Origin: a virus | Strand: one strand, 5' to 3' | DNA: 37,049 nucleotides | Virus record (IMG/VR): IMGVR_UViG_3300044858_005681 | Location: 1 to 37,049 of that record | In this document: piece by piece, positions 6,969 to 19,007 of the stretch | Position numbering within the stretch: position 1 is the first letter of the stretch | Layout of the letters: each line of letters begins with the position of its first letter | Position numbers and translations under genes: made by a program | The notes under the pieces: generated by a model | What the model was told of the DNA's origin: nothing | The model's input: only the letters and a program-made list of their open reading frames with translations | Database searches by the model: none

Positions 6969-8855
6969 TCAGAAGGGGGGCGCGGGGGGATGCTCCGGCT
7001 CTTCAGGGTCCAATACGGCCACGGGCACACAGAATGCGCGCCCCGAATATGCCTTGCCCATGCGTAGATTCCCGATACTCCGCTTGGCATGCGGCATCTG
7101 TTCCATCGCCCGCCACCAAGCTTCGCCCGCAAATTCTGTCCCGGCATAAAGCCGCCGTAATTCCTGGTGCTGGCGCGCAAACCACACCACACGCAAAGGC
7201 AGCCCGCCCAGCGCCTTGGCATCATCATCCGTCCAGACATCTCGCAGCAGCTTCACAGCATCATCGGGCGACAATTGCTGAGGCTTCAGCCCAATGCGCC
7301 TGAGCTCCCCTTCCGGGTCTCCGACGGCATCATGGTCGAAGCATTCGCGCACCAGGTCGCCAACCGGAACGCGCACCTGCCCAGCGGCGCGCGTGATGCT
7401 GGTGGAAGCCAACATCACCCATGCCCGCCGCCCGGCGCTGTCTTCCCGCTGCGCCGCCGCACCGCCGATAAAGGCCGATGCTTCGCGCACCAAGGCCGAT
7501 GCCTCAGCATCCGTGGCAACCGCATCACTGGCCAGCAACCACCAACCCGCCAACAGCGCGCCCACCTGGTCCGCTTCGCGCGCCGTGGCGCCAGCCGCCA
7601 CCAAAGCCGCGCGCATGGCGCGCAGATTGCCATCCCATCGCGGAAAAGCCTTAATCACGCGCCCCAACATTGCCGGGCCCAAGCGATGGCCCTTCGCAAT
7701 GGCGGCATCAATCGCGTCCTTATTGTCGCGCCCCGCTGGCATTAGCGTGATTTCGGTGAAGCGCCCCATGTGTTCGGGCTTCAACACCGGCGGATGAATG
7801 GCCGCATAGCAAACCGACCCCAGCACACTGAAGGACCGGCCACGTCCGTCCGGGCTACCCCGCAACCCGCGCGACCCTTCACCACCTGACGCCGGCAGCA
7901 TCATATCAAACAACGCCGCGGCGCCCGAGCGATCCCCCTGGGCCGCTTCATCGACGACAATCGGCCCAGGCCGATCCGTCACCCGCGATTCAAGACCAGA
8001 TTTAGTGGTGTCATTGCTGTACGCATGCACCGGCAATAGGCCGCGCAGCACATTCATCAGGCTTGTCTTGCCCGTGCCGGTACCACCCAACACCACCAAA
8101 TTCGGCCGCCAGCGCACTGCCGCACCAAGCGACGCAACCGCGCACCAGCCCATCGCCAACATGGCCGCCGCCGGGCCATCGCGGAACACCCATAAATCCG
8201 CAATATCGCGGCGCAGATCATCAATATCCGCTGGGGGGCATGGGGGCGCAGGCTGGCGGCGCACGGAAGGTTCGCGCACATAAACGTGCCGTTCCGTGGC
8301 ACCTTCCACTTCCACATTCACCACAATGCCAGCGGCTTCCGCCCGGCCATCTGCAAAGACTAGGCGCCCGCCCAAATGCAACAGCGGCGCGCCCTTGTCA
8401 TCCGCCCAGATACCCGTGCGGCGCGGCGGATTGCCCACCGGATCGTAAGGCCCAAGCAGGAAGCAAGCGCGCATAATGGCCTTACCGACCTTATCCCAAT
8501 CCTTCACCACCAGCACACCAAAATCATTGCTGACGCCAAAGCGCTGCGCCAGCCACACATCATCCGCGCCGAACAAATCCAGCAGCGTGCTTTTCTGCAT
8601 CATGTCCCGCGCCGGCACCGCGCGGAAATTCCCCCCGGCATCCACCAGGTAATAAAACCCCGGCGCCACGCCGATCGGCACAATGGGCGAGCCTTCAAAA
8701 TCCATCGCATCCGCAGGCGGCGGCATCCGCACCGGCGTGCCATCGCCCGCCGCTTTCTTGCTGGCCTTCTTCGCGCCCGATTCCTTCTGCCGCTGGGCAT
8801 CCGCCATTGCAGCATTGAAGGGGTCAACAACCTCAGCGGCTGAGCTCTGCGACAC
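6969..8855 (-). CDS. AAA-type replicative helicase / primase-helicase-like ATPase
   Basis: About 628 aa from a GTG at 8855, preferred because AGGAGG lies 7 nt upstream; an ATG at 8876 is possible but has no such site. Walker A GGTGTGKTS is at about 257-265 and Walker B IVVDEA at about 299-304, with a likely sensor region (SVLGSVCYAAIHPPVLKPEHMGRF, in two parts) near 345-370. The N-terminal 200 residues resemble the front of phage primase-helicase proteins (WLAQRFGV, LGPYDPVG) but no primase catalytic motif is certain. It probably unwinds DNA at the adjacent iteron arrays. It is the last gene of the leftward early operon. Confidence 0.75.
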   Translation of the reverse strand: MSQSSAAEVVDPFNAAMADAQRQKESGAKKASKKAAGDGTPVRMPPPADAMDFEGSPIVPIGVAPGFYYLVDAGGNFRAVPARDMMQKSTLLDLFGADDVWLAQRFGVSNDFGVLVVKDWDKVGKAIMRACFLLGPYDPVGNPPRRTGIWADDKGAPLLHLGGRLVFADGRAEAAGIVVNVEVEGATERHVYVREPSVRRQPAPPCPPADIDDLRRDIADLWVFRDGPAAAMLAMGWCAVASLGAAVRWRPNLVVLGGTGTGKTSLMNVLRGLLPVHAYSNDTTKSGLESRVTDRPGPIVVDEAAQGDRSGAAALFDMMLPASGGEGSRGLRGSPDGRGRSFSVLGSVCYAAIHPPVLKPEHMGRFTEITLMPAGRDNKDAIDAAIAKGHRLGPAMLGRVIKAFPRWDGNLRAMRAALVAAGATAREADQVGALLAGWWLLASDAVATDAEASALVREASAFIGGAAAQREDSAGRRAWVMLASTSITRAAGQVRVPVGDLVRECFDHDAVGDPEGELRRIGLKPQQLSPDDAVKLLRDVWTDDDAKALGGLPLRVVWFARQHQELRRLYAGTEFAGEAWWRAMEQMPHAKRSIGNLRMGKAYSGRAFCVPVAVLDPEEPEHPPAPPF

Positions 8856-9333
8856 GCGGCACCCTCCTGTAGCCATTGGCGCGCAGCAGCGCGGCGCAGG
8901 CCTGATAAATGTCCAAGTCCTTCATGAAGGCCATCAGGCTGGCAAAGCGTTCACCGCGCGCGCCGCCCGTTTCCGTGATCCAGTTACCGGACGCAGTGCA
9001 GACATAAATGGCCGAGGCATCAGGCCGCGCCATCAGCATCACGCGCCATTCCAGCTTGTCCAACTGCAATTTGAGGGAAGACAAGCGGCTGAGCGGCGCC
9101 GTGAATTCCATGAGCGGCGTGGCAATGCGCGCATGTTCCGAAATCTTGCGCGTGAAGCCCATGGCAACAAAAGCGCGCGCCAGATGCGCATCCGAAAACC
9201 GCGTGACTTCTTCAGCCAATACCCAGGCCAGCGCATCACCCGCCTTGGTGCCCCGCTTGGGCAGCGGCGCGTAAATGCCGGTGTCCAGGCCACGCGCAGG
9301 GCGTTGATCCGGCAAGGCCGAAGCGGCGCTCAA
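8833..9333 (-). CDS. Unrecognised replication-operon protein, 166 aa
   Basis: No family recognised. It starts at a TTG (9333) that overlaps the previous stop (TTGA), and it overlaps the helicase start by 23 nt, so it is tightly coupled in the operon. The protein is soluble and mixed alpha/beta, with segments such as GDALAWVLAEEVTRFSDAHLA, split around 30-55, and a C-terminal helix. Residues about 45-110 look helical with basic patches. Position just before a helicase suggests a loader or single-strand binding accessory, but this is only context. Confidence 0.6.
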   Translation of the reverse strand: MSAASALPDQRPARGLDTGIYAPLPKRGTKAGDALAWVLAEEVTRFSDAHLARAFVAMGFTRKISEHARIATPLMEFTAPLSRLSSLKLQLDKLEWRVMLMARPDASAIYVCTASGNWITETGGARGERFASLMAFMKDLDIYQACAALLRANGYRRVPRVAELSR

Positions 9334-9587: not shown

Positions 9588-9682
9588 GAAAACACCGCCC
9601 ACTGAGCCAGACGATTGATCACCACAGCGGCGGCGCAAATCGCCACCACCACCCCAACGGAAAACCCCACACCCTCCATCAT
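9584..9682 (-). CDS. 32-aa single-span membrane peptide
   Basis: An ATG at 9682 overlaps the GcrA stop (ATGA) and the frame ends at 9584, overlapping the next start (ATGA). The 32-residue product is almost entirely one hydrophobic span (GFSVGVVVAICAAAVVI) followed by a short NRLAQW tail. Two perfect start/stop overlaps make translation likely despite its size. A membrane micro-protein; role unknown. Confidence 0.5.
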   Translation of the reverse strand: MMEGVGFSVGVVVAICAAAVVINRLAQWAVFS

Positions 9683-10302
9683 GCCGCTTCCTTCATCTTG
9701 GCAAAGCACCGCGCATGATGGGCTTCGCAATACGCGCTATCCTGCCGGCCTTCCTTATTGCGTCGTGGGGCCGCATCACAGAAGCGCATATCTTCCAGCG
9801 CCACGCGCACCCCATGCGGCCATAACGGAAACTGACAGCCCCGCGCCTGAAACACCTGCGGCCTGGGCTGCGCCGCCACCTTTTCCCGCTTCGCCTCTGC
9901 CCCATCCAAAAAGCCCCGCGCTGGCGACGGGTTTGTTAAGCGCGCCGCCAGCGCAGGGAAGTTGGACAGGGAGGAAACGACATCCCGCGCGGAGAAAGCC
10001 GCCGCGCCCGGCCTTGGGGCACCCGTGGCGCCCAAGCTTGTTGTGGCGGCGGATGCAGGAGGAAAGACCACACCCGCCGCCGCGCGCCGCACCACAATAC
10101 CCCCATGGCGCGGCGCGCTATTCTGCCGCTGCCCTACCTTGATAGGCGAAGGGCGCGCAGGCAGGCGCAGCCGATGCGCCCTGCCCACCACGGCGTTTTT
10201 CGTGATGCCCATCTCCTGGGCAATTTCCGTTCCGGTATCCCCACGCAGCCAAAGCTGGCGCAGCAGATCATCCTTTTCCTGAGGCCATTTTTCGCCACTC
10301 AT
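9679..10302 (-). CDS. GcrA-family transcription regulator
   Basis: A 207-aa protein with the two-part GcrA architecture. The N-terminal helix-turn-helix (residues about 5-50) includes DDLLRQLWLRGDTGTEIAQ and ITKNAVVGRAHRLRLPAR. A long disordered Pro/Ala-rich linker follows. The C-terminal part has a cysteine/histidine pattern: C156-QFPLWPHG, FC175DAA, YC192EAHH. In Caulobacter, GcrA binds sigma70 RNA polymerase and activates promoters carrying methylated GANTC. A phage copy may redirect host polymerase to phage promoters or disturb the host cycle; this is inference. It sits in the early leftward operon, coupled by ATGA overlaps on both sides. Confidence 0.85.
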   Translation of the reverse strand: MSGEKWPQEKDDLLRQLWLRGDTGTEIAQEMGITKNAVVGRAHRLRLPARPSPIKVGQRQNSAPRHGGIVVRRAAAGVVFPPASAATTSLGATGAPRPGAAAFSARDVVSSLSNFPALAARLTNPSPARGFLDGAEAKREKVAAQPRPQVFQARGCQFPLWPHGVRVALEDMRFCDAAPRRNKEGRQDSAYCEAHHARCFAKMKEAA

Positions 10303-10412
10303 GCGCGCCGCGCCTTACGCGCCCGGCGATCAGCCCAATCCGAAGCATCCAGCACCGCGAAACCAACGCTGCGCAGCACGCTTTCCACCATCCGCCAAAA
10401 CCGCGCCTTCAT
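10299..10412 (-). CDS. 37-aa basic peptide
   Basis: The ORF begins at an ATG (10412) overlapping the CII-like stop and ends in an ATGA overlap with the GcrA start (10302). The product is amphipathic and very basic at the C-terminus (DRRARKARRA). It may simply maintain translational coupling between its neighbours or be a small nucleic-acid-binding peptide. No homologue recognised. Confidence 0.45.
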   Translation of the reverse strand: MKARFWRMVESVLRSVGFAVLDASDWADRRARKARRA

Positions 10413-10861
10413 GCCGCCGCCCTTTCCTTGGCAATGGCAGCAACGGACATGGCCAGCCCCGCCACCTGCAGCGCTTCCAGCGCCAACCCTTGGAAATCTT
10501 CCGCCGAAAGCTTCCCATCCGCATGGGCCTGCGCGAATGCCGCGCTGAGTTCCCCATATTCGCGGGAAAGCTTCACCACCTGGCTGATGAAATCCCCACC
10601 CAGCGCCGCCTGCTGAACCAGCGCAAAGCCCTGCAGCGCCGCCAGGTGGCGCGTCAGCACCGGGTCACCCGCCGCGCGTTCCAGCGCCAGCATGCAATCA
10701 ATTGGCATGAAGCGGTCTGGCGTATGCGGATCATAACACGCGGCCAGGCTGGTTTTGGAAAGCCGCGCCGCAGCGCTGCCCGCTTCCACCCCGCCACAGG
10801 CCTGCACTAAGGCGCGCGTGACTGTTTTAAGGCCGATACCATCAGCCGAGGCCAAATTCAT
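10409..10861 (-). CDS. Phage regulatory protein CII (CP76) family
   Basis: A 150-aa protein resembling the phage CII/CP76 regulators of proteobacterial prophages. Its N-terminal part has LKTVTRALVQACGGVEAG followed by ARLSKTSLAACYDP, the HTH-like region, and then DRFMPIDCMLALERAAGDPV. The C-terminal 60 residues are helical and probably oligomerise. It opens the leftward replication operon and diverges from the membrane-protein pair. The 100-nt intergenic region holds two dyads with a shared half-site, which it may bind. Whether it promotes lysis or lysogeny cannot be told from sequence. Confidence 0.75.
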   Translation of the reverse strand: MNLASADGIGLKTVTRALVQACGGVEAGSAAARLSKTSLAACYDPHTPDRFMPIDCMLALERAAGDPVLTRHLAALQGFALVQQAALGGDFISQVVKLSREYGELSAAFAQAHADGKLSAEDFQGLALEALQVAGLAMSVAAIAKERAAA

Positions 10862-10881
10862 GCTTTCCCCCCATGAATGGC

Positions 10882-10951
10882 GCGGGAAGGCTTCCCGCTG
10901 ATTTGCGTTGTGCCGGCGAATATGATCCGCTTCCCGAAAAGGAACGGGAAG
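10882..10951. promoter_or_regulatory. Two dyads with CGGGAAG/CTTCCCG half-sites in a divergent promoter region
   Basis: GCGGGAA-GGC-TTCCCGC (10882-10898) and CTTCCCG-8 nt-CGGGAAG (10930-10951) give four copies of one half-site in both orientations. They lie between the divergently transcribed CII-like gene (start 10861) and membrane gene A (start 10964). This is a good candidate operator pair for the CII-like protein. A TATGAT at 10921 could be a -10 element, but no matching -35 was found. A GAATC (GANTC class) lies at 10953-10957. Confidence 0.55.
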
Positions 10952-10963
10952 GGAATCAACATC

Positions 10964-11389
10964 ATGGATAAATCAATGGATCGCACCGTGGCCTGGCTGG
11001 CCTTGGCGCTGACGGTCATTCTGACAATCCTGTCAGCAACCACGGTGCACCAAGCAATCAACGCGCCGATCGACCCCACCAAGCGGATGGAGCATTTCGC
11101 GGCCTGCACCACCTGGGCCGCAGGCCAAGCCGTGGCCGGGCGCGTCTGGGCTGATTGCCCGCAACCCCTGGCCGATTGGCACATGGGCCAGCTTTTGGCG
11201 GCGGGCTTCGGCGGGATCATGGCGCTGCTTTCGCTTGGCTTCACCATCCGCCAATTCCAGCGGGCGCGGCCTGATGCCCTGCCGCGCGACGGGGACGAAA
11301 CCATCATCGCCCGCGAAACATCACGCCTGAAAACGCTGAAGGCGCAGGAAGCGATTGCCGAAGAACGCCGCAAACGCGGCGAGGGGTGA
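10964..11389 (+). CDS. Two-TM membrane protein A of a paralogous pair
   Basis: 141 aa from the ATG at 10964, which follows a purine-rich GGGAAGGGAA. TM1 spans about residues 9-28 and TM2 about 76-94. Between them is a roughly 45-residue loop with DPTKR (37-41), C48 and C65, placed outside the inner membrane if the N-terminus is inside. The tail after RQFQ (96-99) is charged and helical. It aligns without gaps to its neighbour B. No known family recognised. It faces away from the lytic operon, so expression from the prophage is plausible and a superinfection-exclusion or conversion role is possible (inference). Confidence 0.7.
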   Translation: MDKSMDRTVAWLALALTVILTILSATTVHQAINAPIDPTKRMEHFAACTTWAAGQAVAGRVWADCPQPLADWHMGQLLAAGFGGIMALLSLGFTIRQFQRARPDALPRDGDETIIARETSRLKTLKAQEAIAEERRKRGEG

Positions 11390-11392
11390 GCC

Positions 11393-11824
11393 ATGACATC
11401 CGAATCATACCGCTCTACCGCCATCGGCAGCCTTGGGCTTGCGCTTTTGCTGCTGATCGGCGCGGCCATCGCATTCCACGCGTCACTGAACCCAACGCCG
11501 GACCCAACCAGGAAAGTGCTGCACGAAGCGGCCTGCCTGCAATTGGCCAGCGTTGCCCGCATTGCCGGGCGCCCATGGCCTGAATGCCAAGTGGTCACCG
11601 CCAGTTGGGATGCCGGGCTGGTAACCCTGTTTGGCGCGCTGCTTGTCTCAGGCTTACTCACGCTGGGCTTCGCGGTTCGGCAATTCCAACACGCGGCAGA
11701 ATGCGCCGCTGAGGGCGACGCCAAACCCGCAACCGATGCGCCACCAACCCCGGAAGAGGCAGAACGCCTGCGCGCCCTTGCGGAGGACGACGCGCGGCTC
11801 AACGCGCGGGGCAAAGCCAGATGA
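11393..11824 (+). CDS. Two-TM membrane protein B of a paralogous pair
   Basis: 143 aa, starting 3 nt after the stop of A, with GAGGGG overlapping that stop as ribosome site. TM1 is at about 11-29 and TM2 at about 75-94. It shares with A, at identical residue numbers, DPT (37-39), C48, W62, C65, W72, LGF (91-93) and RQFQ (96-99). The conserved cysteines could form a disulfide in the outer loop. The acidic tail (PPTPEEAERLRALAEDDARL) differs from the basic tail of A, so the two may pair. A tandem duplication that has diverged; function unknown. Confidence 0.7.
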   Translation: MTSESYRSTAIGSLGLALLLLIGAAIAFHASLNPTPDPTRKVLHEAACLQLASVARIAGRPWPECQVVTASWDAGLVTLFGALLVSGLLTLGFAVRQFQHAAECAAEGDAKPATDAPPTPEEAERLRALAEDDARLNARGKAR

Positions 11825-11858
11825 TAGCCCCTGACACCATGGCAATGCCAAAATGACA

Positions 11859-12080
11859 TCATGCGGCGATCTCCCGCGCGACCGCCGCAACCAGCACCTC
11901 TGGCTCCACGCCGGTCATTTCCGAGATCACTGCCAGGGCCTCCGAAGGAATCGGGGTGCCTTGCCGCTTATCCACCACCCAAGCGAACCAGCGGCTTACG
12001 TTACTTTCAGACACGCCAAGCCGCTGCGCCAAATCGCGCTGGCGGTATCCATTGGCTTTGAGTTTGTCACGAAGGTCCAT
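11859..12080 (-). CDS. Cro-like XRE/HTH regulator, 73 aa
   Basis: Starts at ATG 12080 (MDLRDKLKANG); a longer frame to 12116 would cross its own promoter. The HTH is clear: YRQRDLAQRLGVSESNVSRW, recognition helix SESNVSRW, followed by a short helical tail. The size fits a Cro-type dimer. Its predicted promoter ends at 12089, so the message would begin within a few nt of the ATG, effectively leaderless like lambda cI from PRM. The promoter carries the 15-bp operator, implying self-repression or control by the opposing repressor gene. No stretch of usable length separates its stop from the convergent gene B. Confidence 0.8.
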   Translation of the reverse strand: MDLRDKLKANGYRQRDLAQRLGVSESNVSRWFAWVVDKRQGTPIPSEALAVISEMTGVEPEVLVAAVAREIAA

Positions 12081-12088
12081 GCCCCTAT

Positions 12089-12116
12089 GTTGCACCACGT
12101 GCAACTTGCATGTCAA
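12089..12116 (-). promoter_or_regulatory. Leftward promoter with 15-bp operator overlapping its -10
   Basis: On the minus strand, TTGACA (12116-12111), a 16-nt spacer and TGCAAC (12094-12089). The spacer/-10 carries TTGCACGTGGTGCAA (12104-12090), an imperfect dyad with TTGCAC/GTGCAA arms. A repressor bound here would cover the -10. It drives the Cro-like gene. Confidence 0.7.
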
Positions 12117-12173: not shown

Positions 12174-12557
12174 ATGACTGAAAAAGATGAACTTCGCACG
12201 CTTTCGCCCGAAGTTAGGGCGGCCAGGCTGGCGGCGCAGCGCGCATTGCTGCAATTTATTCCTGCGTGGCTTAGGTATCGCGGCCTAAGAAAGAAACATA
12301 TTGCGAACATCCTTGAAGTGTCGCAGAGTGTCGTTTCGCGATACTTTTCAGGGGAGGCAATGATGCCGGCCGGGGCGCTCGAACAAATAGCAATTTTGTT
12401 GCAGGCCGACCGCGGCGCAATCCTACACCCCCCTCCCTCTGGCGTTTTGGGGCCAATGATGGACGCAACCATTCAAGAGATGGAACGCCTCGGCCCGGAG
12501 CAATGGCAGAAAGTGCTGGAAGTAGCCCAGGCCATGCGGGAACCCACCAAGGCATAA
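12174..12557 (+). CDS. XRE-type repressor-like protein, 127 aa
   Basis: An HTH occupies about residues 36-62: RKKHIANILEVSQSVVSRYF. An N-terminal helix (PEVRAARLAAQRALLQFI) precedes it, and a helical C-terminus (TIQEMERLGPEQWQKVLEVA) could serve for dimerisation. There is no S24/LexA-type autocleavage domain, so induction would not be by RecA-stimulated self-cleavage. The start has almost no ribosome site. Base composition is more A+T-rich than that of neighbouring genes. Divergent from the Cro-like gene and flanked on both sides by the same operator, it is the best candidate for the lysogenic repressor. Confidence 0.7.
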   Translation: MTEKDELRTLSPEVRAARLAAQRALLQFIPAWLRYRGLRKKHIANILEVSQSVVSRYFSGEAMMPAGALEQIAILLQADRGAILHPPPSGVLGPMMDATIQEMERLGPEQWQKVLEVAQAMREPTKA

Positions 12558-16296: not shown

Positions 16297-16676
16297 CTGA
16301 CCGCCTCCGCACCATGGCAGACCTGGCCGCGCTTCTCCAATGCGCCCCAAAAACAGCGCGCCGGCGGCTGAATGACGCCATGGTGAAGGACCTCGGCTTG
16401 CATGTCACGCGCCGGGGCCGCACCATTCTATTTACTGACCAGCAATTTCACCGGGTAATTCAAGCTCTCCAATGGCGATGCACCTCCGAAAACGCGGCGC
16501 GATCTGGTATGCGTCCGGCACCGTCAGGGTCGGGCGGGAAAGCCATGCGGTCCGGGAATTCAGCACAGGAGCAAGTGCGCGAATTGACGCAGAGGCTGTT
16601 GCAGCAGCCGAAGAATCGCGCATCAGGCAAGCCGCGCTTGCAGGCCCTGCCGGGCGGGCGCGCGGCCTTACCATAG
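16293..16676 (+). CDS. Excisionase-like HTH protein overlapping the integrase
   Basis: 127 aa from ATG 16293. Residues about 6-60 form a winged-helix/AlpA-type HTH: TMADLAALLQCAPKTARRRL, then GLHVTRRGRTILFTDQQFHRVIQAL. The arrangement DNA-binding protein then integrase is typical of xis-int. From about residue 61 on, its codons overlap the first 68 codons of the integrase in another frame for about 205 nt, and this tail looks non-globular. An earlier natural end cannot be seen, so the overlap is probably real but unusual in length. Confidence 0.65.
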   Translation: MTDRLRTMADLAALLQCAPKTARRRLNDAMVKDLGLHVTRRGRTILFTDQQFHRVIQALQWRCTSENAARSGMRPAPSGSGGKAMRSGNSAQEQVRELTQRLLQQPKNRASGKPRLQALPGGRAALP

Positions 16677-17497
16677 CCGCGGCGATCCAAGCCTATCTGA
16701 CCCGCCCCGGGGGCGTCGCGCGGCAGGATGTTCAAAAGCTGGCCCGCGTGAATGACGCCATAGGCGCCTTCACCCTGGCCGATACCGCCGCCGCCTGGGC
16801 AGCATGGCAGGCAGAAAACCCCGCCCATAGCCCCGCCACCGCCACCCGCTACCGCGCGCTGCTGACCGCTGCCATCCGCACCGCCTGCGCCGGCATAGGC
16901 GCCGATGCGCCCGCGCTGCCCGCCGTGCGGCACCGCAAGCGGGAAATCCTGGCGCACCTGACCGATACCGAACGCGCGGCCCTTCTGCGGTCCTACAGCC
17001 CCCACGCCGCCTGCTCGGTGCTGCTTTTGGCCTATCAGGGGATGCGCACGCGGGAAGCCCTTAGGCTGGACTGGCGCGATGTGGATTGGGCCACAGAGAC
17101 CTTACGGATACCTGCCCAGCGCGCCAAGGCAGGCCGCGCGCGGGCCGTGCCAATGCACCCGCGCGTCAGGATGCTGCTTTATGGGATGTGGTGTGCCGTC
17201 GGCGAACCCCAGGCCGGCACTGTGTTCCTGAGCGCGCGGGGCGAACCCTATGCCGACACCCGCGACATAGGCGGCAATCCCCTGGCAGCCGCACACCGCA
17301 CCGCCTGCCGGAAGGCTGGCGTGAAGGGCTTCAGGGTGCATGACTGGCGCCATGACTGGGCCGCGCGCATGGTGCTGGCCGGTGTGGATCTGGTGACGCT
17401 GATGGAAATCGGCGGCTGGCAGTCCCTGGCCATGGTCCAGCGCTACGCGACGATCCGGGCAGACCATCGCCGGGAAGCAATTGCCCGGCTGGCGTAG
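16472..17497 (+). CDS. int: Tyrosine-family integrase
   Basis: 341 aa (ATG 16472, alternative 16478). The N-terminal 60 residues form a small arm-type binding domain (RKRGAIWYASGTVRV). The core-binding domain covers about 62-155 and the catalytic domain about 160-341. Active-site residues visible: Arg192 in YQGMRTREAL, a Lys at about 219, His290 and Arg293 in VHDWRHDW, Trp316 in GGWQSL and the nucleophile Tyr325 in MVQRYAT. It recombines attP with a tRNA-Met gene: the tRNA half-gene lies 160 nt downstream. It is the last gene of the rightward operon and is expected to be silent in the lysogen. Confidence 0.95.
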   Translation: MAMHLRKRGAIWYASGTVRVGRESHAVREFSTGASARIDAEAVAAAEESRIRQAALAGPAGRARGLTIAAAIQAYLTRPGGVARQDVQKLARVNDAIGAFTLADTAAAWAAWQAENPAHSPATATRYRALLTAAIRTACAGIGADAPALPAVRHRKREILAHLTDTERAALLRSYSPHAACSVLLLAYQGMRTREALRLDWRDVDWATETLRIPAQRAKAGRARAVPMHPRVRMLLYGMWCAVGEPQAGTVFLSARGEPYADTRDIGGNPLAAAHRTACRKAGVKGFRVHDWRHDWAARMVLAGVDLVTLMEIGGWQSLAMVQRYATIRADHRREAIARLA

Positions 17498-17774: not shown

Positions 17775-18536
17775 TTATGCCGGAAACCTCACCTTCCACG
17801 CATCCAGCACCCGCGCAAACAGCGCGCGCCGATCTACCAAACCATGCAAACCACCATTCACGCGGCGCGTGATAGGCTCCACCATCACCCCGCCGCCCTG
17901 ATCCGCCATCTCATTTAGCCCAGCATCGGCCCACCACCAGGTGCTACCCAGCGCGGCACCAACCGGCGTGGCCAGGCGGGCCGACGCGTCTTCAGCTTCA
18001 CCCCAGCCAAGAGCATGGGCCATGCGCTCATGATTTTCGCGGCCCGTTACCTGGATCAGCCCGTGGCCACGGAATCGCCAGCCGTCATTCGGGAACACAT
18101 TACCCATGCGCCCGCCATACACGCGATTCGCCAGCGCCTGGGGCTGGCGCACGAAGGGCATGGCATCAGCTTCCAGCGGGAAGCGCTTCGGCCAGGTGGC
18201 GCAGATGCGCCCTGGGGTGGAATACATCATGTCTTCCACCAGGCGCGTCAGGCCGGCGCTTTCATGCCCCACCTGCGCCAGGAAATGCGCGATGCGGAAG
18301 CGGCTGGTGATGTGATAGGCGGCCATGGCGGCGGAAAGTGCTTCAGCATAGGCGGCGGCGTCCGCGCGCGGGAAAACCTCAGCCACGAAACCACGCGAAA
18401 GCAGCGAGGCGAGCGGCTTGGGCGGCGGTGAATATTCACTGGCAGGCACCGGGTTTGCGCTGGATGGCGGGATCTGCAGGGGCGCGGGCGGCGGTGAATT
18501 TTCACTGGCGCGACGGCCAAAGGGCCACCACTTCAT
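17775..18536 (-). CDS. Endolysin, GH19 chitinase/lysozyme family
   Basis: 253 aa from ATG 18536, overlapping the o-spanin stop. A short N-terminal leader (MKWWPFGRRAS) and a proline-rich linker containing two SE(N/Y)SPPP repeats precede the GH19 domain (about 45-253). Catalytic Glu92 is in QVGHESAG, and FRGHGLIQVTGRENH is the conserved substrate-cleft segment. It cleaves the glycan strands of peptidoglycan at the end of infection. There is no clear signal peptide, so release probably needs the holin. Last gene of the leftward late transcript, next to attP. Confidence 0.92.
   Translation of the reverse strand: MKWWPFGRRASENSPPPAPLQIPPSSANPVPASEYSPPPKPLASLLSRGFVAEVFPRADAAAYAEALSAAMAAYHITSRFRIAHFLAQVGHESAGLTRLVEDMMYSTPGRICATWPKRFPLEADAMPFVRQPQALANRVYGGRMGNVFPNDGWRFRGHGLIQVTGRENHERMAHALGWGEAEDASARLATPVGAALGSTWWWADAGLNEMADQGGGVMVEPITRRVNGGLHGLVDRRALFARVLDAWKVRFPA
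18421..18509. repeat. Pair of 23-bp direct repeats inside the endolysin linker
   Basis: A 23-mer at 18421-18443 recurs at 18487-18509 with one mismatch. Each contains a dyad (GTGAATATTCAC, perfect, in the first; GTGAATTTTCAC in the second). In frame they encode the SEYSPPP and SENSPPP linker repeats, so protein-level duplication explains them. A regulatory role is not needed. Confidence 0.5.
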
Positions 18537-18772
18537 GGCCGCACCATGCCGCGCACGGCGCGCAGCTTGCCGCGGCAATCCGCCCCGGCTTCCACCAGGT
18601 CTATGATGAATTCGGCCAGCAGCGGATCATTCACCTGCCCGGCCAGGCGCGGTTCATCTCGGCACACCAGCAGGCTATCGGGCACGGTCACCGCCGGCGC
18701 CTTGGCGCAGCCCGTCCAGAACGGCGCGAATAGCAGGGCTATCAACGCAGGCAGTGGTTTTCGGTGCGGCAT
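18533..18772 (-). CDS. Rz1-like outer-membrane spanin lipoprotein
   Basis: 79 aa. A signal peptide (PLPALIALLFAPFWTGC) ends in a lipobox-like cysteine at about residue 22. The rest carries the conserved pattern of o-spanins from alphaproteobacterial phages: VPDSLLVCRDEP in the middle and AGADCRGKLRAVRG at the end. The gene starts inside the i-spanin gene in another frame, the classical Rz/Rz1 nested arrangement. With Rz it fuses the two membranes in the last lysis step. The -3 lipobox position is Trp, which is unusual. Confidence 0.78.
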   Translation of the reverse strand: MPHRKPLPALIALLFAPFWTGCAKAPAVTVPDSLLVCRDEPRLAGQVNDPLLAEFIIDLVEAGADCRGKLRAVRGMVRP

Positions 18773-19007
18773 AGATCACCCTTCGGATTGGTTCGATTCG
18801 CGCGGCCTGGGCAGCGGCTTCAGCCGCCTGCGCTTCCAGCGCGGTAATGGCGCGGGCTTTTGATTCCGCCTGCGCTTCTGCGGCTTCCGCCCGGGCCGTG
18901 GCAGCGTGCCGCCCGGCGCGTTCCAGCCAGGCCCAACCGGAAAGCGCAGCCAGCACACCAGCCATGGCAACCCAGCGGCCAATGGGGGAAAGCAGAAGAG
19001 CGATCAC
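18675..19007 (-). CDS. Rz-like inner-membrane spanin
   Basis: 110 aa. An N-terminal transmembrane anchor (about 10-27, GRWVAMAGVLAALSGWAWL) is followed by an Ala/Glu/Arg-rich periplasmic coiled coil (AEAQAESKARAITALEAQAA) and a C-terminal segment with TTACVDSPAIRAVLDGL. Starts in an ATGA overlap with the methyltransferase stop. The o-spanin gene begins within it. Architecture and nesting are diagnostic. Confidence 0.82.
   Translation of the reverse strand: MIALLLSPIGRWVAMAGVLAALSGWAWLERAGRHAATARAEAAEAQAESKARAITALEAQAAEAAAQAARIEPIRRVIYAAPKTTACVDSPAIRAVLDGLRQGAGGDRAR

What the first reader, a model, noticed from the sequence alone, without database searches (positions are those of the whole stretch)
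10964..11824. Gap-free paralogous pair of two-TM membrane proteins
Proteins A and B align without a gap over about 100 residues: DPT 37-39, C48, W62, C65, W72, LGF 91-93, RQFQ 96-99. They diverge only in the cytoplasmic tails, one basic and one acidic. They are transcribed away from the lytic operon, beside the immunity region, where prophages place exclusion or conversion genes. No known family was recognised. A paired envelope device with a disulfide-bearing outer loop is plausible.
Basis: partly seen in the sequence, partly recalled or inferred. Interest (0 to 1): 0.72.

Follow-up and report, generated by a model that had tools for sequence, protein, structure and literature searches.

The report
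Swappable envelope genes nested antisense in operon
The two membrane-protein genes are real, but they are one of several interchangeable sets of small envelope genes that a family of temperate phages keeps backwards between its cro and cII genes, and in every relative a second reading frame on the opposite strand runs unbroken through them and joins cro to cII, as if ribosomes are meant to keep reading through.

Summary
A (10964-11389 +) and B (11393-11824 +) are paralogues: 37/101 identities without a gap, all listed residues correct. The "paired device" does not hold. In six related viral contigs A occurs without B, and in two of them cro follows directly. A and B occupy a cargo slot between cro and cII, on the lysogeny strand and antisense to the lytic operon. 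In 16 contigs, counting the window, the slot holds A, A+B, A+X (one TM, weak WYL match), a 31%-identical two-TM protein A'', A''+X, long A'', or lipoproteins Lp1, Lp2 or both. All cargo is predicted envelope protein. A's outer loop is swapped like a cassette. This resembles the noncontiguous operons in which prophages keep immunity genes, so exclusion or conversion is the likely role (not tested). The unexpected part is a cro-strand frame (window 10858-11862 -) that runs from cro's stop to cII's start, overlapping at both ends. It is unbroken in all 16 contigs, over nine cargo sets, five cro types and two cII types. Its protein sequence is not conserved between cargo types; its openness is. 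Best reading: a translated relay that shields the antisense stretch from Rho and couples cII to cro. Translation itself is inferred.

The parts
10964..11389 (+). Gene A: 141 aa, two predicted TM helices, outer loop about 30-74 with C48/C65, basic cytoplasmic tail
   Evidence: AF2 helices 3-33, 38-57, 72-101, 112-137 at mean pLDDT 66
11393..11824 (+). Gene B: 143 aa paralogue of A, found in no other contig here; lies in a 469-nt stretch (11390-11858) absent from L003 and L007
10858..11862 (-). Bridge frame, 334 codons, fully antisense to A and B; its ATG overlaps the cro-like stop (ATGA, 11859-11862) and its TGA overlaps the cII-like ATG (ATGA, 10858-10861)
   Evidence: equivalents in 15 related contigs
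11859..12116 (-). Cro-like HTH gene (listed from a TTG; the internal ATG at MDLRDK is the likelier start)
   Evidence: HTH_3 E=1.9e-6, phage repressor families
10409..10861 (-). CII-like regulator
   Evidence: phrog_101 E=7e-16, Pfam Phage_CP76 E=1.5e-4 below its cut-off
12174..12557 (+). Putative CI-like HTH repressor, divergent from cro
   Evidence: HTH_31 E=7e-6; orientation
10862..10963 (+). cII-to-A intergenic region: nearly identical in all A-type relatives; holds the perfect palindrome GCGGGAAGGCTTCCCGC (10882-10898) and TATGAT read towards A. Presumed CII-activated cargo promoter
   Evidence: promoter function inferred

Best explanation
A and B are cargo in a modular, lysogeny-strand slot nested between cro and cII of a temperate phage. 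Shown: the slot is antisense inside the cro-cII run, its occupants are swapped among relatives and are all predicted envelope proteins, and an open cro-strand frame joins cro to cII across every occupant. Inferred: the cargo is transcribed during establishment and maintenance of lysogeny from a promoter between cII and A, activated by CII like lambda pRE or 186 pE, and acts in the inner membrane and periplasm to exclude or modify superinfecting phages, the outer loop carrying specificity. Inferred: on induction the cro promoter transcribes antisense through the cargo, silencing it. Ribosomes ending cro reinitiate at the overlapping ATG, translate the bridge frame and hand over to cII, so the long antisense stretch is not left naked for Rho and CII synthesis is coupled to Cro.
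For: Slot: cargo is A, A+B, A+X, A'', A''+X, long A'', Lp1, Lp2 or Lp1+Lp2 in 16 contigs including the window. Cargo is coding: dN/dS about 0.1-0.5 in every family with relatives, good Shine-Dalgarno sequences, lipobox LMGC/LTGC. A alone in its relatives. Loop cassette: L003 vs L007 nucleotide identity 0.95 / 0.58 / 0.93 across N+TM1 / loop / TM2+tail. Bridge: clean ORF with overlap at both ends in 16/16 contigs, 0 stops in this frame, while the other two cro-strand frames together hold 5 to 22 stops in each contig; five cro types, cro-side junctions ATGA, TGATG or TAATG, cII-side ATGA, TGATG or a 10-nt overlap. Chance of an open frame given the cargo proteins and phage codon usage: A 0.07, B 0.04, X 0.30, A'' 0.27, Lp2 0.2-0.25, Lp1 0.4; slices of the phage's own genes give 0.30 or 0.09 depending on register. 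Precedent: prophage immunity genes kept in noncontiguous operons (PMC11087260, PMC11364771).
Against: No transcript, ribosome or phenotype data. Shuffling synonymous codons within each gene leaves openness unremarkable (P 0.11-1.0; uninformative for register 0), so part of it follows from low-T, GC-rich codon use. Single-gene cargo swapped at conserved flanks keeps phase automatically, and contigs share ancestry and some junctions (TGATGTCA), so independent events are fewer than 16. In MinM1 the same frame is open but at 74% GC that says little. Rho control and absence of antitermination in this phage were not tested. No exclusion-protein family matched. No sigma-70 consensus promoter was found before A.
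Confidence: 0.55

Rival explanations
1. The bridge frame is a by-product: GC-rich genes with few TCA/TTA/CTA codons have open antisense frames, and compact phage junctions create stop-start overlaps by themselves. Only the cargo slot is biology.
For: Antisense frames are open in 30% of register-0 slices of the phage's own genes; within-gene permutation is not significant for A; overlapping starts follow many stops in this genome.
Against: A, B and A'' sit in a register open in only 9% of control slices, yet are open; the frame used is always the one bounded by overlaps at both cro and cII, over five cro types and nine cargo sets, none broken. Multiplying one value per cargo family gives about 2e-5 before junctions are counted (a rough figure, since families and junctions are not fully independent).
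Confidence: 0.25
2. The bridge frame is a true protein gene overlapping the cargo gene (dual coding), whose product acts in the lytic cycle.
For: Clean start and stop, conserved within a cargo type.
Against: Bridge proteins of different cargo types share at most a short C-terminal stretch (about 25-44 residues) encoded outside or at the edge of the cargo; length ranges 137-352 aa; composition is typical of antisense translation (Ala, Arg, often Ser rich); A and A'' are recognisably related as cargo (E=5e-9) but not as bridge protein.
Confidence: 0.07
3. A and B form an obligate paired envelope device.
For: Tandem, in register, 3 nt apart, homologous with conserved Cys.
Against: A without B in all seven relatives of the same A subfamily that were found; no B elsewhere.
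Confidence: 0.06
4. A and B serve lysis or its timing (holin, antiholin or spanin-like).
For: Small two-TM proteins; an endolysin (17775-18578) and an Rz-like protein (18675-19007) are encoded but no holin was identified.
Against: On the strand opposite to the lytic genes, inside the early region, replaced in relatives by lipoproteins and an X protein with a weak WYL match; no holin family match.
Confidence: 0.07

Closest known systems
Noncontiguous operon (S. aureus menE-menC-MW1733-ytkD; PMC7154746, PMC6358700 as cited there)
   Same: Gene(s) on the opposite strand nested inside a run of co-directional genes, so that the two transcripts must overlap.
   Different: [quoted passage not shown] here that region is an open frame joined to both neighbours.
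Prophage immunity in noncontiguous operons: 80alpha tha/ith (PMC11087260), phi80 tai/ati (PMC11364771)
   Same: Lysogeny-expressed gene and lytic gene on opposite strands at one place, giving exclusive expression.
   Different: No protein kinship known; in 80alpha the nested antisense gene is the inhibitor, in phi80 the immunity gene. The phi80 gap has 6, 12 and 17 stops in its three frames, so no bridge.
P22 SieA, HK97 gp15 and other exclusion proteins (PMC10883804)
   Same: Small prophage-encoded inner-membrane proteins; SieA comes in divergent types.
   Different: SieA has three predicted TM helices and its own putative promoter; no sequence family match here.
Lambda pRE / phage 186 pE establishment promoters (own knowledge)
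   Same: Promoter near cII reading back across the cro side towards cI, activated by CII.
   Different: No membrane-protein genes lie on the lambda pRE transcript before cI; CII activation is not shown here.
Synechococcus phage MinM1 (ON981384), nearest named relative by terminase
   Same: Opposite-strand genes between a cro-like gene and cII, including a two-TM protein with a Cys pair in its loop (UXQ89137).
   Different: No significant sequence similarity to A (hhalign probability 5%); the cro stop is not overlapped by a start codon.

Membership tests
Noncontiguous operon | Gene(s) in opposite orientation inside a run of co-directional operon genes | tested here: met
   cro(-), A/B(+), cII(-) in the window; same layout in 15 related contigs
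Noncontiguous operon | Flanking genes co-transcribed through the nested gene | not testable with these tools
   Needs RNA-seq or RT-PCR across cro-cII; no terminator-like site was found between cro and cII on the minus strand
Noncontiguous operon | Internal stretch opposite the nested gene is untranslated | tested here: inconclusive
   Sequence shows a clean frame bridging both neighbours; translation itself not tested
Noncontiguous operon | Reciprocal regulation of the two transcripts | not testable with these tools
   Needs expression data in lysogeny and induction
Prophage superinfection-exclusion membrane protein | Small protein predicted in the cell envelope, carried by a temperate phage | tested here: met
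   Two TM segments; integrase 16472-17497 E=3.5e-23
Prophage superinfection-exclusion membrane protein | Blocks superinfection of a lysogen | not testable with these tools
   Needs plaque assays
Prophage superinfection-exclusion membrane protein | Sequence match to a described exclusion or defence family | tested here: not met
   Pfam, PHROGs, NCBIfam, PADLOC: no significant match for A or B
Holin/antiholin/spanin | Match to lysis families, or placement in the lysis cassette | tested here: not met
   No match for A or B; A'' to an Rz-like family only at E=0.06; opposite strand and about 6 kb from the endolysin

The most novel reading that the evidence does not exclude
A phage family keeps swappable envelope genes antisense inside its lytic operon and maintains, through every swap, a non-conserved but always open reading frame on the other strand that is translated only to carry ribosomes from cro to cII: a reading frame selected for being read, not for its product, that makes a nested antisense gene compatible with Rho.
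Probability: 0.45. Interest if true: 0.85.

Novelty: new variant of a known kind. Interest (0 to 1): 0.68.

Why it matters
Noncontiguous operons have recently emerged as a way prophages switch immunity genes off during their own induction, but I found no account (in the papers searched) of how a lytic operon gets through a long antisense stretch, where untranslated RNA is the classic target of Rho, in phages without antitermination. This locus offers a candidate answer testable with a few synonymous mutations. It also marks a slot where new small envelope exclusion genes can be harvested by position alone, and warns that gene finders may call the bridge frame as a gene.

Tried and rejected
Homologues of A or B in annotated phages and of A in plasmids: none. 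B-only scan: none. MinM1's two-TM protein as a sequence homologue: rejected (hhalign 5%; no relatives). Solved structures: AF2 model of low confidence (pLDDT 66), no Foldseek match with E below 1. Antisense ORF as the true gene instead of A/B: rejected on dN/dS, codon-position GC, and distance over which each strand's protein stays recognisable. Within-gene codon permutation as a test of bridge openness: too weak to decide. MinM1 as an independent replicate of the bridge: set aside because of 74% GC. Paper searches for translated noncontiguous operons or antisense relay frames found no description.

Full report
WHAT IS THERE. A (10964-11389 +, 141 aa) and B (11393-11824 +, 143 aa) are genuine paralogues: BLASTP E=4e-17, 37 identities in 101 gap-free positions, score 166 against a shuffle maximum of 24. 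Each has two hydrophobic segments, and an outer loop with two cysteines. AF2 gives A helices 3-33, 38-57, 72-101 and 112-137, at low confidence. No Pfam, PHROGs, NCBIfam or PADLOC family matches significantly. The window is a virus record of 37,049 bases with an integrase. The early leftward run is cro-like (11859-12116 -), CII-like (10409-10861 -, phrog_101 E=7e-16) and a primase-like gene (6969-8876 -). A CI-like HTH gene reads the other way. A and B lie antisense between cro and cII.

A IS CODING ON THE + STRAND. Across relatives substitutions fall at third positions (W vs L004: 8, 4, 25), dN 0.032 against dS 0.306. GC by codon position is 0.66/0.52/0.77, as in the other phage genes tested. 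The opposite frame has 0.53/0.65/0.72, unlike any of them.

THE PAIR IS NOT A UNIT. Six viral contigs carry A at 70-98% identity and none carries B; a seventh (L013) carries A with X. In L003 and L007 the A stop is followed after four bases by the cro stop, so the 469 nt with B are a gain in the window or a loss in the others. In L007 the outer loop (residues 43-82) is 58% identical in DNA to L003, while the segments before and after are 95% and 93% identical: a loop cassette.

A CARGO SLOT. Following the primase and CII proteins brought in more distant relatives. Between cro and cII, always on the lysogeny strand, they hold: A'' (L039, 31% identical to A, E=5e-9); A'' plus X (L040); long A'' (L047); lipoprotein Lp1 with lipobox LMGC or LTGC (L043, L044, L046, L048, L050); lipoprotein Lp2 (L045); and Lp1 plus Lp2 (L042). 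X, also next to A in L005 and L013, is a one-TM protein with a weak WYL match (Pfam E=3e-4, just below its cut-off). Each of these families shows purifying selection (dN/dS about 0.1-0.4), and the cargo starts inspected have good ribosome-binding sites. All are predicted envelope proteins. This is the best evidence that A and B work in the envelope of a lysogen; superinfection exclusion is the usual role of such genes, but it was not tested.

THE BRIDGE. On the cro strand of the window one frame (10858-11862) starts with an ATG overlapping the cro stop (ATGA) and ends with a TGA overlapping the cII ATG (ATGA), with no stop in 334 codons. The same was then found in all 16 contigs, counting the window: cro-side junctions ATGA, TGATG or TAATG; cII side ATGA, TGATG, or a 10-nt overlap where TGATG is absent. 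In one of the 16 (L043) the cro start is cut off by the contig end. Cargo length and family, cro (five kinds) and cII (two kinds, about 42-46% identical) differ. The bridge has zero stops; the other two cro-strand frames together hold 5 to 22 per contig. Given the cargo proteins and the phage's codon usage, the chance of openness is 0.07 (A), 0.04 (B), 0.30 (X), 0.27 (A''), about 0.2 (Lp2) and 0.4 (Lp1). In slices of the phage's own genes the two registers used are open in 30% and 9% of cases. The product over families is about 2e-5, before the junctions are counted. Cautions: shuffling synonymous codons within a gene does not single out A (P=0.52); the contigs are related; conserved flanks keep phase for single-gene swaps; the test was made after seeing the pattern. 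Bridge proteins of different cargo types share nothing beyond a short C-terminal stretch, while cargo relationships stay visible. So what is kept is openness and linkage, not a protein.

HOW IT MOST LIKELY WORKS. Between cII and the cargo lies a conserved region with a palindrome (window GCGGGAAGGCTTCCCGC at 10882-10898, the only perfect match in the window; relatives GCGGAA-nnn-TTCCGC) followed by promoter-like hexamers read towards the cargo (ATGACA-17-CATATT in the L040 group; only TATGAT in the window group, read by eye; the consensus scan found none before A). A CII-activated establishment promoter like lambda pRE or 186 pE is the natural reading, from established knowledge and not shown. 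On induction the cro transcript would run antisense through the cargo. Precedents are noncontiguous operons (PMC7154746) and prophage immunity genes kept in them (PMC11087260, PMC11364771). In the general description the internal stretch is untranslated (PMC7154746), and the phi80 stretch has stops in all frames, in an operon where the Q antiterminator acts. Here the stretch is an open frame joined to both neighbours, so I infer a ribosome relay that prevents Rho polarity and couples CII to Cro.

HOW SURE. Cargo slot and antisense nesting: about 0.95 as sequence facts. Envelope role: about 0.85. Exclusion or conversion: about 0.55. Bridge maintained by selection: about 0.7. Relay as its reason: about 0.5. 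A-B obligate heteromer: about 0.06.

Noticed in passing
window 9679-10302 -: A 207-aa protein whose start reads like a GcrA cell-cycle regulator (own recognition, not scanned), kept in the relatives; would fit an alphaproteobacterial host.
   Followed up: partly
L007 6386-8083 and L013 1314-3011: The primase-like gene is replaced by a 27%-identical one while cII, A and the gcrA-like gene stay, so the replication gene is a module of its own.
   Followed up: no
L040 2279-2752 - (also L005, L013): X: one TM helix plus a weak WYL match (Pfam E=3e-4; PADLOC RT-WYL E=1.4e-7; phrog_6785 E=2.8e-7). A membrane-tethered ligand sensor would be unusual cargo.
   Followed up: partly
L030 2663-3313 -: MinM1 UXQ89137: positional analogue of A, two TM with a Cys pair in the loop; its annotated start is probably too early.
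   Followed up: partly
L040, L042-L048, L050 at the cro/cargo junction: The octamer TGATGTCA holds the cro stop, the bridge ATG and often the cargo stop on the other strand, and recurs between different cro and cargo genes; it may be a recombination boundary as well.
   Followed up: partly
window 10931-10951: Second inverted repeat CTTCCCG-AAAAGGAA-CGGGAAG just before A, overlapping its ribosome-binding region; identical in all A-type relatives. Possible control of A translation.
   Followed up: no
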